Origin: Pseudolabrys sp. FHR47
GTDB taxonomy: Bacteria > Pseudomonadota > Alphaproteobacteria > Rhizobiales > Xanthobacteraceae
Direction of reading: 5' to 3'
NCBI RefSeq assembly: GCF_005153485.1
Contig: NZ_CP039740.1
Coordinates: forward strand, 2,917,001-2,981,000
Length of the DNA stretch: 64,000 bases
The position numbers were made by a program, and so were the translations under genes. Below are positions 48,115-58,331 of the stretch, in pieces (position 1 is the first letter of the stretch; each line of letters begins with the position of its first letter). The notes beneath the pieces were generated by a model, which worked only from the letters and a program-made list of their open reading frames with translations, made no database searches and was not told where the DNA came from.

Positions 48115-49176
48115 CTAGGCAGCGATGTGCGCCATATCGGCAGGCGTGTCCACCAGCAGCGCCAGCGCATCAGCCATGACCGCCGCGGAAGCGCCGGGCT
48201 TGACCGCCTCAACCGAGAGGTGCCGGCGGAAGGCACGCGCCCCGGGCACGGCGCGGAACAGGCCGAGGACGTGGCGCGTGATGGAATTGAGCCGCACGCC
48301 CTTGGCCATCTCGCGCTCGATATAGGGAATCAGCGCCTCGGCCGCCGCCTTGGCCGAGGCGAACGGGGCCGGCTCGCCATAGAACATCGGATCGACGTCG
48401 AGGAGCCGCCACGGCTCCTGATAGGCGGCGCGGCCGAGCATGACGCCATCGAGCTGGCCCATGTTCTCGCGCGCCTGCTCGAGGCAGCCGAGCCCGCCAT
48501 TGAGGACAATCGGCCAGTCCAGGTGCGCCGCCTTGAGACGGTGCACGATGGCGTAGTCGAGCGGCGGGACTTCGCGGTTCTCCTTCGGCGACAGACCTTG
48601 CAGCCACGCCTTGCGCGCGTGGACAATGAGCGCATCGGCGCCAGCTTTCTTCACCTCGCCGGCGAAGGCAAACAACACCTCTTCCGGCTCCTGATCGTCG
48701 ACGCCAATGCGGCACTTGACCGTGACCGGCACTTTCACCGCCGCCTTCATCGCGGCAACGCTGTCGGCGACCAGTTGGGGTTCGAGCATCAAGCAGGCGC
48801 CGAAGCGGCCTTCCTGGACGCGGTCGGAAGGACAGCCGACATTGAGATTGATCTCGTCATAGCCGAAGCCCTCGCCGATCCGGGCGCTCTCGGCCAGCGC
48901 CGCCGGATCGCTGCCGCCCAGTTGCAGCGCGATGGGATGCTCGGCCGCATCGAAACCGAGCAGCCGCTGCCGGTCGCCATGGATCACAGCACCGGTCGTT
49001 ACCATCTCGGTATAAAGAAGCGCCCGGCGCGTCATGAGGCGATGGAAGAACCGGCAGTGCCGGTCCGTCCAATCCATCATGGGGGCGATACTGAAGCGTC
49101 TTTGCGGCATTTTCCGAGGCTTTTGAGGCGATTTCGACTCCGCTGGAGCGGCGTCGACCGTCCGATTGCCTCTCAT
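48115..49176 (-). CDS. dusA: tRNA-dihydrouridine(20/20a) synthase DusA
   Basis: An FMN enzyme that reduces uridines 20 and 20a of tRNA. The 353-residue protein shows SIAPMMDWTDRHCR, QLGGSDP, the catalytic cysteine in NVGCPSDRV and GRAAYQEPW. The first 22 residues before MPQRRFS are poorly conserved, so ATG 49110 is an alternative start. The SIAPMMDW codons contain a 22-bp sequence repeated at 58236 in a truncated dusA copy. The 5' end of this gene may therefore have been supplied by the adjacent island. Confidence 0.95.
   Translation of the reverse strand: MRGNRTVDAAPAESKSPQKPRKMPQRRFSIAPMMDWTDRHCRFFHRLMTRRALLYTEMVTTGAVIHGDRQRLLGFDAAEHPIALQLGGSDPAALAESARIGEGFGYDEINLNVGCPSDRVQEGRFGACLMLEPQLVADSVAAMKAAVKVPVTVKCRIGVDDQEPEEVLFAFAGEVKKAGADALIVHARKAWLQGLSPKENREVPPLDYAIVHRLKAAHLDWPIVLNGGLGCLEQARENMGQLDGVMLGRAAYQEPWRLLDVDPMFYGEPAPFASAKAAAEALIPYIEREMAKGVRLNSITRHVLGLFRAVPGARAFRRHLSVEAVKPGASAAVMADALALLVDTPADMAHIAA
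49073..49094 (-). repeat. Candidate attachment site attL in dusA
   Basis: A 22-bp sequence, TCCATCATGGGGGCGATACT plus GA on the plus strand, lies in the dusA start region and encodes SIAPMMD on the minus strand. It is identical at 58236-58257 in direct orientation. It marks the left boundary of a putative island. Confidence 0.75.
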
Positions 49177-49536
49177 TACGGCTTATTGGCGCTCATTTCC
49201 ACCCCAGCAAAATTGGATCTGGCGTCGCCCCCGGCAAATGAAATGCAGCCTTACACGTCCGCACAGGCCGAAATTAGAATGCCAGTCGGCACCTCATCAA
49301 AGTAGAAGCGAAATTTCTAAGGGCAACCACGGTACGACAAACGCATGAGACTAGGCGCCCTGCTCTCTTAAAATCGGAATCGGTGAACGAGTCGGCCCCT
49401 CAACAAGTCCCGCAAATTGCTCACCCCTTCTTCCCGAAAGCGGACATTCGCAGCTCACTGCGGCATACCCGCTAAGGGCCATAGCCGGACTTAGATCATC
49501 CGTGTCACGCCAGTGGCCCGACGCCGCAACCCTGCC
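49177..49536. other. Non-coding, lower-GC interval at the left end of the island
   Basis: No gene is recognised in these 360 bp upstream of dusA. A 60-codon plus-strand frame at 49166-49348 overlaps the dusA start and has no family features. The stretch is visibly less GC-rich than its neighbours. In a dusA island an integrase would be expected here; I found no trace of one by eye. Confidence 0.6.
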
Positions 49537-49719
49537 TCATTCCTCTTTGAACCCGAGCTGCATTTCATTACCCTTGGCGCCGTAATACTTGAACGGCAGG
49601 AACTTGCCGGTCACCAGGATCGGCGACATGCCACCGATCGCTTCGCAGATATATTTCCAGGTCCAGCCTTTGTCGCGTTTGATGTCGAGAAGCTTTTCCG
49701 TCAGCCCTTCGCGAGTCAT
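49537..49719 (-). pseudogene. cynS: Cyanase gene with large in-frame internal deletion
   Basis: A 60-codon frame whose product joins the two ends of cyanate hydratase. Residues 1-36 (TEKLLDIKRDKGWTWKYICE) match the N-terminal DNA-binding-like part. Residues 37-60 (TGKFLPFKYYGAKGNE to LGFKEE) match the extreme C-terminus. The roughly 95 residues between them in a normal cyanase (about 156 residues), which carry the catalytic Arg, Glu and Ser, are missing. The start is ATG 49719 with AAAGGAG six bases upstream. It is the last frame of the transporter operon. The product should have no cyanase activity. Confidence 0.82.
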
Positions 49720-49725
49720 GGGCAT

Positions 49726-49732
49726 CTCCTTT
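49726..49732 (-). promoter_or_regulatory. Ribosome-binding site of the truncated cynS
   Basis: AAAGGAG on the minus strand is six bases before ATG 49719 and directly abuts the in-frame ATG at 49725, so 49719 is the better start. The site overlaps the stop of the permease gene. Confidence 0.7.
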
Positions 49733-57077: not shown

Positions 57078-57686
57078 ATGACAGAGGCAGCCCAGATCGA
57101 CGCTCCACAGGCCGATAGCGAGGATCGGGCGCCACCGCGTGAGCGGCTGATCGACAGCGCGAAGAACCTATTCTGCCGCTATGGCATCAACTCGGTCGGC
57201 GTCGACGCCATTGTCGAGCGCGCCGGAACGGCGAAGACGACCCTCTATAAGTTGTTCGGCTCCAAGGACGGGCTGGTCGAAGCGGTTCTCGATCGCGAGG
57301 GCCAAGCCTGGCGTTCGTGGTTTCTCGCCGAGATCGACGGCCCCGGCGGCTCGGCGCGCGAGCGCCTCGACCGCATCGGCCCTGCCCTGAAGATCTGGTT
57401 CACGCGCGACGATTTCTTCGGTTGCCCGTTCATCAACGCGGTCGGCGAGTCCGACAAGACGGACGACCGCATGCGGGCACTCGCCATCTCGCACAAGAAG
57501 ATCGTGATCGACCGATTGTCGGCTTTATGTGACGAAGCGGGAATGTCCGAAGCCGAGAAAATCGCGCATACGATCGGCTTGATCATGGACGGCGCCATTG
57601 TCGTTGCACTGATCACACGCGATCCTTCGGCCGCCGACATCGCGGCCCGAGCGTGCAAGTCAATTCTGGAAAGCGCGCCAGTTTAA
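57078..57686 (+). CDS. TetR-family transcriptional regulator
   Basis: A 202-residue repressor. The N-terminal helix-turn-helix (about 20-65) includes RLIDSAKNLFCRYGINSVGVDAIVERAG and TTLYKLFGSKDGLV. A C-terminal ligand-binding domain (about 70-195) contains CPFINA. It is divergent from the OsmC-led operon, with a perfect palindrome between, so local autoregulated control of that operon is likely. The ligand is unknown. Confidence 0.9.
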   Translation: MTEAAQIDAPQADSEDRAPPRERLIDSAKNLFCRYGINSVGVDAIVERAGTAKTTLYKLFGSKDGLVEAVLDREGQAWRSWFLAEIDGPGGSARERLDRIGPALKIWFTRDDFFGCPFINAVGESDKTDDRMRALAISHKKIVIDRLSALCDEAGMSEAEKIAHTIGLIMDGAIVVALITRDPSAADIAARACKSILESAPV

Positions 57687-57871
57687 ACTGGCGAGCACGG
57701 ACCACATTCCAAAATCGCATAGCACTCCGCAGGACGCAGAGAACATCTGCCAAGGCACGTTGCGAGCACCTCGTTGGCGCGAGTGCTACGGCGCCACGTC
57801 TGCTCCGGATCAAATGCGGCGATCTCAGAGCAACTTGAGGCAGCCTGGAGTCTCGGCCGGTCGACGGCGCT

Positions 57872-58202
57872 CTATTGTTCCTGCCCGAGATACAAGGCCG
57901 CCGCACGATCATCGGCGAGCAGAGATCCGGCATCGCCCGACAGAACAACCTTGCCGGCGTCCAGGATGGCGCCGCGATGCGCGATGGCCAACGCTTAACG
58001 TGCGCGTTGCTCGACCAGCAATACAGCCGTGCCGGCTTCCGGCAGACGCGCGATACGGGCGAAGCTCTCATCGACCAACGCCGGCGCCAGTGCCGCGGTC
58101 GGTTCGTCGAGCATGACGACACGAGGACGAGTCATCAAGGCGCGGGCGAAAGCGAGCTGTTGACGTTCGCCGCCCGACAGAGAGCTGGCCGCCGATCGCC
58201 GG
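57872..58202 (-). pseudogene. livF: livF-like ABC ATPase remnant
   Basis: The minus strand reads the C-terminal part of a branched-chain amino acid-type ATPase. It has signature LSGGERQQLAFARALM, Walker B VVMLDEPTAAL, then VLLVEQRAR and a TAA stop at 57995-57997. The reading continues in the same frame (ALAIAHRGAILDAGKVVLSG, LGQEQ) to a true TAG at 57872. The Walker A half is absent: the coding ends abruptly near 58200 beside the dusA fragment. Truncation plus the in-frame stop make it non-functional. Confidence 0.85.
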
Positions 58203-58204
58203 CG

Positions 58205-58331
58205 TTATATTTTTAATTCGGAACGAACGATCCAGTCCATCATGGGGGCGATACTGACCCGCCTTTGGAGCATTGTTCGAGATCTTCCGCAGGGCATTGG
58301 GCGCCCTTGAAGCAGCGCCGAACACCAATTT
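58205..58331 (-). pseudogene. dusA: Displaced 5' fragment of dusA
   Basis: The minus strand encodes LQRRVSIAPMMDW, as in dusA at 49073-49110, then diverges and stops at 58205-58207. The ATG at 58271-58273 corresponds to the dusA ATG at 49110. A further 22 codons upstream, as in dusA, an ATG starts with similar residues (MTGNW against MRGNR). Similarity continues into the region before it. This is the part of the original gene that an insertion would displace. Confidence 0.8.
58236..58257 (-). repeat. Candidate attachment site attR
   Basis: This is an exact 22-bp direct copy of 49073-49094. It lies at the end of the conserved SIAPMMDW codons in the truncated dusA fragment, where similarity to dusA stops. 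Confidence 0.75.

What the first reader, a model, noticed from the sequence alone, without database searches (positions are those of the whole stretch)
49073..58257. A 9.2-kb genomic island inserted at the 5' end of dusA, with both attachment sites
A 22-bp sequence from the dusA start region occurs twice in direct orientation (49073-49094, 58236-58257). At the right copy the dusA reading frame ends just after SIAPMMDW, but similarity continues outward through the start region of the gene. This is the pattern left when an element inserts in dusA and supplies a new 5' end. dusA is an established integration target of a family of tyrosine recombinases. The cargo is transport, redox and sulfur genes. 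No integrase was found, so the element may be a stranded remnant or part of a larger one.
Basis: partly seen in the sequence, partly recalled or inferred. Interest (0 to 1): 0.78.

Follow-up and report, generated by a model that had tools for sequence, protein, structure and literature searches.

The report
Integrase-less operon island array at dusA
The 9-kb insert beside the tRNA-modifying gene dusA is real, but it is only the first of at least three islands stacked there; related bacteria carry similar stacks of whole metabolic operons that lack the enzyme needed to move them and yet have been gained, reordered and shared between species.

Summary
A 22-bp dusA-start repeat (49073-49094, 58236-58257) lies within about 134 bp of 72% similarity. 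Relative G007 gives the requested comparison: its dusA is joined directly to the sequence beyond the right repeat (13.0 kb collinear, 76.5%), so 49073-58236 is an insertion.

It is the first unit of a tandem array. G000, a one-contig genome, has four same-strand copies of the dusA 5' end (window-equivalent 49073, 58236, 73929, 104350), bounding units of 9.2, 15.7 and 30.4 kb. None has a tyrosine- or serine-recombinase domain match; two relic integrase fragments lie in and beyond the third.

A model of displaced copies finds 55 in 18 of 43 genus genomes, six behind one dusA in G030 (94 kb). None of 25 closed units (8 genomes, median 14.9 kb) has such a domain match. One unit (9.3 kb, eight metabolic genes) is slot 6 in G030 and slot 1 in G023: 99.0% identical from core to core, where dusA and the pepN region are 87-90% identical.

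Closest known: dusA integrase islands, cis-mobilizable elements, Dehalococcoides ssrA island stacks. New variant of a known kind. Mobilisation in trans is inferred, not shown.

The parts
48115..49110 (-). dusA, functional copy (331 aa from ATG CCG CAA AGA CGC); about its first 12 codons and its leader are supplied by the island
   Evidence: ORF. The body is conserved in relatives while the 5' end differs between genomes.
49073..49110 (-). att1: core ending ...TCGCCCCCATGATGGA, with the island-derived start of dusA
   Evidence: Shared 22-bp core.
49161..49200 (-). Left-arm repeats of unit A: four 10-bp repeats GGAAATGAGC GCCAATAAGC CGTAATGAGA GGCAATCGGA, starting 128 nt before the end of the core
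   Evidence: Score 30/40 to a consensus chosen by eye, 0 of 300 base shuffles as high; similar repeats beside the integrase-bearing elements of G028 and G009.
49074..58236 (.). Unit A (9.16 kb), first unit of the array; no recombinase gene found
   Evidence: Bounded by att1 and att2. Absent between dusA and unit B in G007. No PF00589 or PF00239 match.
49731..50570 (-). ABC transporter permease (cargo)
   Evidence: PF00528, E 2.8e-22
50567..51820 (-). NMT1-like substrate-binding protein (cargo; ORF open further upstream to 51985)
   Evidence: PF13379, E 3.4e-45
51834..52715 (-). ABC transporter ATPase (cargo)
   Evidence: PF00005, E 2.3e-33 (scanned from 52679)
52687..53895 (-). FAD/NAD(P) reductase-like protein (cargo)
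   Evidence: PF07992 and PF14759
53988..54875 (-). Two-domain rhodanese (cargo)
   Evidence: PF00581, two stretches, E 7.8e-37
55045..56181 (-). Acyl-CoA-dehydrogenase-like flavoprotein (cargo)
   Evidence: PF02771. Among the 120 best of 3182 hits, two proteins named Pseudolabrys sp. are 82% and 78% identical and those named Rhodopseudomonas 76-80%.
56218..56961 (-). OsmC-family protein (cargo)
   Evidence: PF02566, E 3.1e-18
57078..57686 (+). TetR-family regulator (cargo)
   Evidence: PF00440, E 1.6e-13
58205..58273 (-). att2: displaced dusA 5' end (MLQRRVSIAPMMDWIVRSELKI, stop); core final A at 58236; degenerate right arm of unit A below it
   Evidence: Displaced-copy profile E 3.7e-10 and model E 9.9e-9; this copy was among those the models were built from.
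58324..58363 (-). Left-arm 10-bp repeats of unit B
   Evidence: Score 25/40, 0 of 300 shuffles as high
58237..64000 (.). Unit B, part in the window (ends at att3, w73929): FAD-binding protein, isochorismatase, hydantoinase A/B-like; beyond the window PEP-mutase-like, ABC-transporter genes, aconitase-family, SDR and LysR pieces
   Evidence: Pfam (hydantoinase B named by recall). Same gene order directly beside dusA in G007 and at G028 C74:232187-246384.

Best explanation
[quoted passage not shown] Each unit, as a circle, would carry right arm + core + left arm (attP). Recombination with the core inside dusA puts the unit between dusA and the older units, gives dusA a new leader and first codons, and leaves the old dusA 5' end as a displaced copy at the far border. 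The catalyst is most likely a dusA-associated tyrosine integrase (DAI family) supplied by another element, in trans or from a neighbouring integrase-bearing island, because no recombinase was found in the units. Old att sites then decay, leaving a long variable zone beside dusA. Shown here: the insertion, the borders, the stacking, the absence of recombinase-domain matches, and whole units shared with core-to-core borders. Inferred: a circular intermediate, the identity of the integrase, action in trans, and the route between cells.
For: G007 lacks unit A and joins dusA directly to unit B. Four same-strand copies in G000. Model R1 gives 55 displaced copies in 18 of 43 genus genomes, 51 at E<=2e-6 and four at 8e-6 to 3e-4; 23 of the 55 had been used to build it. 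On 13 contigs with two or more copies (dusA counted), all 40 copies share one strand per contig. G030 has dusA plus six displaced copies over 94 kb. A 9.3-kb unit is slot 6 in G030 and slot 1 in G023: 99.04% over 9297 bp, starting at the last base of the core, against 86.8% in dusA and 89.9% in 15.6 kb around pepN. Order is swapped: G023 dusA|U9.3|U2.7; G002 C49 ..|U2.7 with an insert|U9.3 (outward direction on the G002 contig is taken from its att copies). No PF00589 or PF00239 match (E<=0.01) on the contigs or stretches holding 25 closed units. Integrase-bearing relatives exist: DAI at E<1e-140 in 7 of 43 genomes, six beside dusA and one beside a displaced copy. G001 (empty) and G015 (67 kb inserted, DAI beside dusA) are an empty/occupied pair with flanking proteins 95-98% identical. 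Four 10-bp arm repeats are shared by integrase-free units and the integrase-bearing elements of G028 and G009.
Against: No excised circle or integration was observed. No complete DAI is found in G000 now, so unit A may be immobile today. G007 and G000 are about 78% identical at dusA, and unit B of G000 begins with a further 1.5 kb (FAD gene) not aligned in G007, so the empty-site comparison is not base-exact. The right arms of att2 and att3 are degenerate. Units could have moved as part of composite islands. The arm repeats are not universal: 23 of 55 left arms tested reach p<=0.003; att4, the type II arms and the integrase-bearing G005 and G015 elements do not show them clearly, and G013 and G025 only weakly (p about 0.03). 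A partial model match in G018 (positions 9-45, E 0.002), not counted, lies on the strand opposite to dusA. All relatives but G010 are in several contigs, many in hundreds.
Confidence: 0.82

Rival explanations
1. Ordinary accretion and decay: each unit was once an island with its own DAI; the integrases were deleted and the remnants (CIMEs) move only in cis, when a neighbouring active island excises with them as a composite.
For: This is the described route (passage read in PMC5704250). Relic DAI fragments survive in G000: 90 codons inside unit C (73% identical to the G025 integrase) and 66 codons to the right of att4 (88% identical to the G028 integrase). G031 keeps a truncated DAI beside dusA. 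att4 resembles the arm type of G028's integrase island.
Against: None of 25 closed units has a recombinase-domain match and only one has a detected relic. The 9.3-kb unit is complete, 99% identical between G023 and G030 and has different neighbours in the two, so it seems to have moved as itself after losing, or never having, an integrase.
Confidence: 0.4
2. Units are exchanged by homologous (RecA) recombination between arrays, the att copies serving as short homology blocks.
For: Cores and arms give repeated blocks of about 20-140 bp in the arrays.
Against: The shared unit starts at the last base of a core of about 20 bp and its flanks differ on both sides between G023 and G030. Orientation is constant on every multi-copy contig. 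Units sit at dusA with a replaced gene start, as site-specific insertion predicts.
Confidence: 0.08
3. The repeats are a dispersed or promoter-carrying repeat unrelated to integration.
For: The copies also share about 100 bp of leader.
Against: In G000 the model finds copies only beside dusA, on one strand. Empty and occupied sites are seen.
Confidence: 0.02

Closest known systems
dusA-specific genomic islands with DAI integrases (Farrugia et al. 2015, PMC4482086; outline, passages, and the first two of three parts of the Results read)
   Same: Same target at the 5' end of dusA, imperfect direct repeats of about 21 bp, new dusA 5' end supplied by the island, old end displaced. The genus also has islands with complete DAI-like integrases beside dusA.
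   Different: There the integrase gene is the one universal feature and islands average 42.6 kb. Here the units show no integrase, have a median of 14.9 kb and are stacked. Words beginning with 'tandem' or 'array' do not occur in that text.
Tandem ssrA genomic islands of Dehalococcoides (2011, PMC3146451; passages read)
   Same: Many tandem islands beside one gene, bounded by its direct repeats, with metabolic (respiration) cargo; 15 islands lacked the integration module and were suggested to be cis-mobilizable.
   Different: Serine recombinase and tmRNA gene there, with 16 islands bearing the module; tyrosine integrase family and a protein-coding gene with a swapped N-terminus here, and no module in any of 25 closed units.
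Cis-mobilizable elements (CIME) and accretion (review PMC5704250; one passage read)
   Same: Elements with attL/attR but no integration or transfer genes, stacked at one site.
   Different: CIMEs are described as decayed islands. Here an intact unit of metabolic genes is shared, 99% identical, between genomes with different neighbours.
Tandem islands IEVpaBan1a/b at dusA in Vibrio (PMC8409611; passages read)
   Same: Two elements in tandem at dusA.
   Different: Both are described with integrases.
Integron cassette arrays (recalled, no call)
   Same: Works somewhat like one: recombinase-free cargo modules stacked at one site, newest nearest the anchor gene, reordered between genomes.
   Different: No resident integrase beside the site in G000, operon-sized units, attC-like folding not tested; not a member.

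Membership tests
[quoted passage not shown]
dusA-specific GEI (DAI family, Farrugia 2015) | Integrase gene whose 5' end adjoins the 5' end of dusA | tested here: not met
   No integrase gene in units A or B of G000 and only a relic in unit C. Met by elements in G005, G009, G013, G015, G025, G028.
dusA-specific GEI (DAI family, Farrugia 2015) | Excision as a circle | not testable with these tools
   Needs PCR or reads
DAI integrase (for the helpers, not for unit A) | Tyrosine recombinase with conserved R..H..R..H..Y residues | tested here: met
   Invariant R215, H297, R300, H323, Y332 in alignment A1 (which residues are catalytic is recalled); PF00589. No direct comparison with Farrugia's sequences was run.
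Cis-mobilizable element (CIME) | attL and attR kept, no integration or transfer genes | tested here: met
   att1/att2 present; no PF00589 or PF00239 in the array. Transfer genes were looked for only through Pfam on the ORFs scanned.
Cis-mobilizable element (CIME) | att sites still functional; mobilised by an adjacent or related element | not testable with these tools
   Sequence only
Cis-mobilizable element (CIME) | Derived by decay from an ICE/IME | tested here: inconclusive
   Relic DAI fragments in unit C and beyond att4; none detected in units A or B
Integron | Integrase gene (IntI) beside a primary attI site | tested here: not met
   No PF00589 match in or beside the array of the one-contig genome G000

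The most novel reading that the evidence does not exclude
In this genus dusA works as an integron-like platform for whole operons: recombinase-free 2-47 kb cassettes (transport, catabolic and nitrate-respiration operons) are captured, stacked and reshuffled at the dusA core by integrases that the cassettes do not encode, supplied in trans by occasional integrase islands, some with the same 10-bp arm repeats. This builds hypervariable zones of 120-270 kb beside dusA.
Probability: 0.4. Interest if true: 0.82.

Novelty: new variant of a known kind. Interest (0 to 1): 0.64.

Why it matters
It shows how bacteria of this group can gain and trade complete catabolic and respiratory operons as clean units with no detected mobility gene, so such DNA would escape tools that look for integrases. 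It also makes one question directly testable: can a dusA integrase move passive units in trans? If so, integrase-free 'cargo islands' stacked at a housekeeping gene may be an overlooked route of metabolic gene flow.

Tried and rejected
Rejected: a plain dispersed repeat (the extra 3-mismatch match at g2185003 has no model support). Rejected: hidden DAI remnants in the window. Considered and dropped as resident helper: the integrase of about 400 aa at g2630713 ('P4-like' is my recalled label). It is found at E<=1e-40 in 20 of 43 genomes, 76-92% identical in the 19 others (a second G028 copy is 63%), but not in the array-bearing G002, G012, G023, G025, G031 and G035. Considered: the whole dusA-pepN interval as array. 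pepN lies 280 kb from dusA in G000, but synteny with G033 resumes at about 3188 kb, so about 222 kb is variable and only the first 55 kb has recognisable att copies. Outside the genus: 80 dusA loci (the best 80 of 588 confirmed) gave DAI hits in 17, beside dusA in 15 (13 as one open frame), but a displaced copy in only one (L046, Pseudorhodoplanes MAG, E 1e-4). These loci reach at most 10 kb upstream, many less, and the profile was trained on this genus. No gene family was shared by all units compared at 50% identity or more. Literature searches touching tandem or integrase-less islands or dusA: (the last found 0 papers). None of the listings showed this system, but the library holds open-licence papers only, and apart from passages of PMC8409611, PMC3146451, PMC5704250 and sections of PMC4482086 I saw only listings.

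Counts: the 55 copies are matches that reach model position 65 or beyond. Left out: functional dusA starts and partial matches at G002 C1:150845, G028 C74:120762, G018 C1:3174065, G065 C170 and G024 C171. That search scored 100 of up to about 1,260 candidates per genome with strict filters, so counts are lower bounds; on fragmented assemblies one site could also be counted on two contigs. The 25 closed units are those with both ends known (G000 3, G030 6, G028 6, G002 4, G025 1, G012 2, G023 2, G029 1). The outer end of one G028 unit and the dusA-side end of one G002 unit rest on partial copies, and the G025 unit contains a further partial copy. 'No recombinase' means no PF00589 or PF00239 match at E<=0.01 (controls: the two families ring in 14 and 10 of 14 known genomes) and, but for the G000 relics, no hit of local DAI and general integrase searches.
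Full report
OBSERVATION. The repeat is exact and in the stated places. The two copies share more than the 22 bp: 72% over 134 nt, reaching upstream of the gene start. The window is G000:C1:2917001-2981000, a 4.52-Mb genome in one contig. Searching that genome with the dusA start gave a third copy at g2990926 (76% over 143 nt). A profile of displaced copies gave a fourth at g3021350 (E 2e-9; E 5e-13 once it was itself among the 23 rows of model R1). All four are on the minus strand, like dusA. 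They bound units of 9.16, 15.69 and 30.4 kb.

IS IT AN INSERTION? G007 is one: its dusA aligns to w48161-49205 and, 168 bp further on, 13.0 kb aligns at 76.5% to w59841-72675. The genes of 49-58 kb are absent there. Nine genes of unit B keep their order, 71-88% identical. Unit B is therefore slot 1 in G007 and slot 2, behind unit A, in G000. Elsewhere in the genus, G001 has dusA followed by a run of genes leading to a transporter-like gene and pepN, while in G015 the same genes (95-98% identical) begin beyond a displaced copy 67 kb from dusA, with a DAI-type integrase beside dusA (the gene names are from resemblance and recall).

WHAT THE SITE LOOKS LIKE IN THE GENUS. In the 28 dusA starts aligned, the body after ATGATGGA is conserved, but the first codons and leader fall into different types even among near relatives. 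Displaced copies carry, right after ATGATGGA, a related right arm (roughly GAGGGCGGGCTGAGCGGGAATATC...TACTTAGC...TGTTGTAC), variable in detail: mean column identity of core plus arm is 59%. Model R1, built from 23 such copies, gave 55 displaced copies in 18 of 43 genomes. On 13 contigs with two or more copies (dusA counted) all 40 copies share one strand per contig; an uncounted partial match in G018 lies on the opposite strand. The longest run is G030: dusA plus six copies in 94 kb; G028 has six on one contig.

NO RECOMBINASE FOUND IN THE UNITS. Twenty-five units with both ends known, in eight genomes, are 1.9-47 kb long with a median of 14.9 kb. The lists of PF00589 and PF00239 matches at E<=0.01 for those eight genomes put none on the contigs (G000: the stretch) that hold these units. 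DAI integrases at E<1e-140 occur in 7 of 43 genomes, six beside dusA and one, G035, beside a displaced copy; more distant integrases score lower. Of the 18 genomes with displaced copies, 13 have no such DAI. Several of these are incomplete assemblies, but G000 is a single contig. G000 keeps two relics: 90 codons in unit C and 66 codons to the right of att4.

UNITS ARE SHARED WHOLE. The 9.3-kb unit of G030 (slot 6) and of G023 (slot 1) is 99.04% identical over 9297 bp, beginning at the last base of one core and ending across the next. dusA (86.8%) and 15.6 kb around pepN (89.9%) are far more diverged between the two. It holds eight called genes: a MetE-like protein, TetR, an acyl-CoA-synthetase-like protein and five ABC-transporter genes of the branched-chain type. 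The start of the same unit (3.2 kb) lies in G002 C49 at 99.0-99.6%, and an 87% version lies in G012 C117. In G023 the order is dusA|9.3|2.7; in G002 C49 the 2.7-kb unit (99% over 2.5 kb, 89% over its first 0.25 kb, with an insert of about 1.2 kb) comes before the 9.3-kb one. The G002 contig does not reach dusA; its direction is taken from its att copies. G002 and G023 are close elsewhere (97% over 9.3 kb around pepN, though 88% in dusA), so the swap may be recent. G029 slot 1 and a 29.8-kb unit of G002 align over 29.2 kb at 79.6%. By their gene calls the G030 units look like whole operons; slot 5 looks like a nar nitrate-reductase operon (named from recall on the gene calls, not by a family search), and 10.3 kb of it is present at 82.6% upstream of dusA in G022.

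THE WIDER ZONE. Between dusA and g3188 kb in G000 (222 kb) no blastn match of 600 bp or more (E<=1e-30) joins it to the matching zone of G033 (123 kb), although dusA on one side and 3188-3250 kb on the other align at 81-90%, two paralogous matches at 66-68% aside. Blocks inside the zone match array units elsewhere: g3085-3104 kb matches G028 at 63.9-81.5 kb, whose right end is about 200 bp from a G028 att copy, and G030 at 77.0-94.5 kb, whose left end is about 340 bp from a G030 att copy. This fits older units that have lost their att sites, but is inference.

ARMS. Of 55 left arms tested, 23 score at p<=0.003 for four 10-bp repeats near GGAAATGAGC, in most of the integrase-free type I copies starting 125-132 nt before the end of the core. 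The integrase-bearing G028 (35/40) and G009 (26/40) elements have the same pattern, 0 of 300 shuffles as high in each. Against it: the consensus was chosen by eye from these sequences, the shuffles keep base composition only, type II arms and att4 lack the pattern, and of the other integrase-bearing elements G013 and G025 show it weakly and G005 and G015 not. It is a hint, no more, that DAI integrases could act on these units in trans.

MECHANISM AND VERDICT. Shown: insertion at dusA, replaced gene start, stacking, absence of recombinase-domain matches, and whole units shared with core borders. Inferred: circular intermediate, a DAI integrase acting in trans (or in cis from a neighbour), and loss of att sites with age. 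The phenomenon belongs with dusA-specific islands (PMC4482086), CIMEs (PMC5704250) and ssrA island stacks (PMC3146451), but unit A fails the one universal feature of the first (an integrase), and sharing of intact integrase-free units between species goes beyond the decayed-remnant picture of the second. I rate it a new variant of a known kind. The host is probably near Pseudolabrys: the best hit that bears an organism name, for one cargo protein, is 82% identical in a Pseudolabrys sp. MAG.

Noticed in passing
G002, G023 dusA versus pepN region (L134, L136, L244, L245): G002 and G023 are 97% identical around pepN but only 88% in the dusA body, so dusA itself may be exchanged or evolve unusually fast beside the array.
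   Followed up: no
L013 (G000:C1:2630713-2631195): An integrase of about 400 aa is kept in 20 of 43 genus genomes, 76-92% identical in the 19 others, as if vertically inherited.
   Followed up: partly
L212, L211 (G030:C1 142303-157445): A nitrate-reductase-like (nar, named by recall) operon appears as an att-bounded unit in G030 and, at 82.6% over 10.3 kb, upstream of dusA in G022.
   Followed up: partly
L216:3276 (G002 C49): The right end of a unit shared with G030 slot 5 (98.7%) is cut inside the right arm with the core lost, a small-scale view of att decay.
   Followed up: partly
L046 (Pseudorhodoplanes sp. MAG), 5231-5307: Of 80 dusA loci outside the genus, only this one has a displaced copy within reach, about 4.8 kb from dusA, with a DAI between.
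   Followed up: no
window 44604-46199: Large ORF that reads like a sensor histidine kinase (recalled resemblance) downstream of dusA; seen only as an ORF.
   Followed up: no
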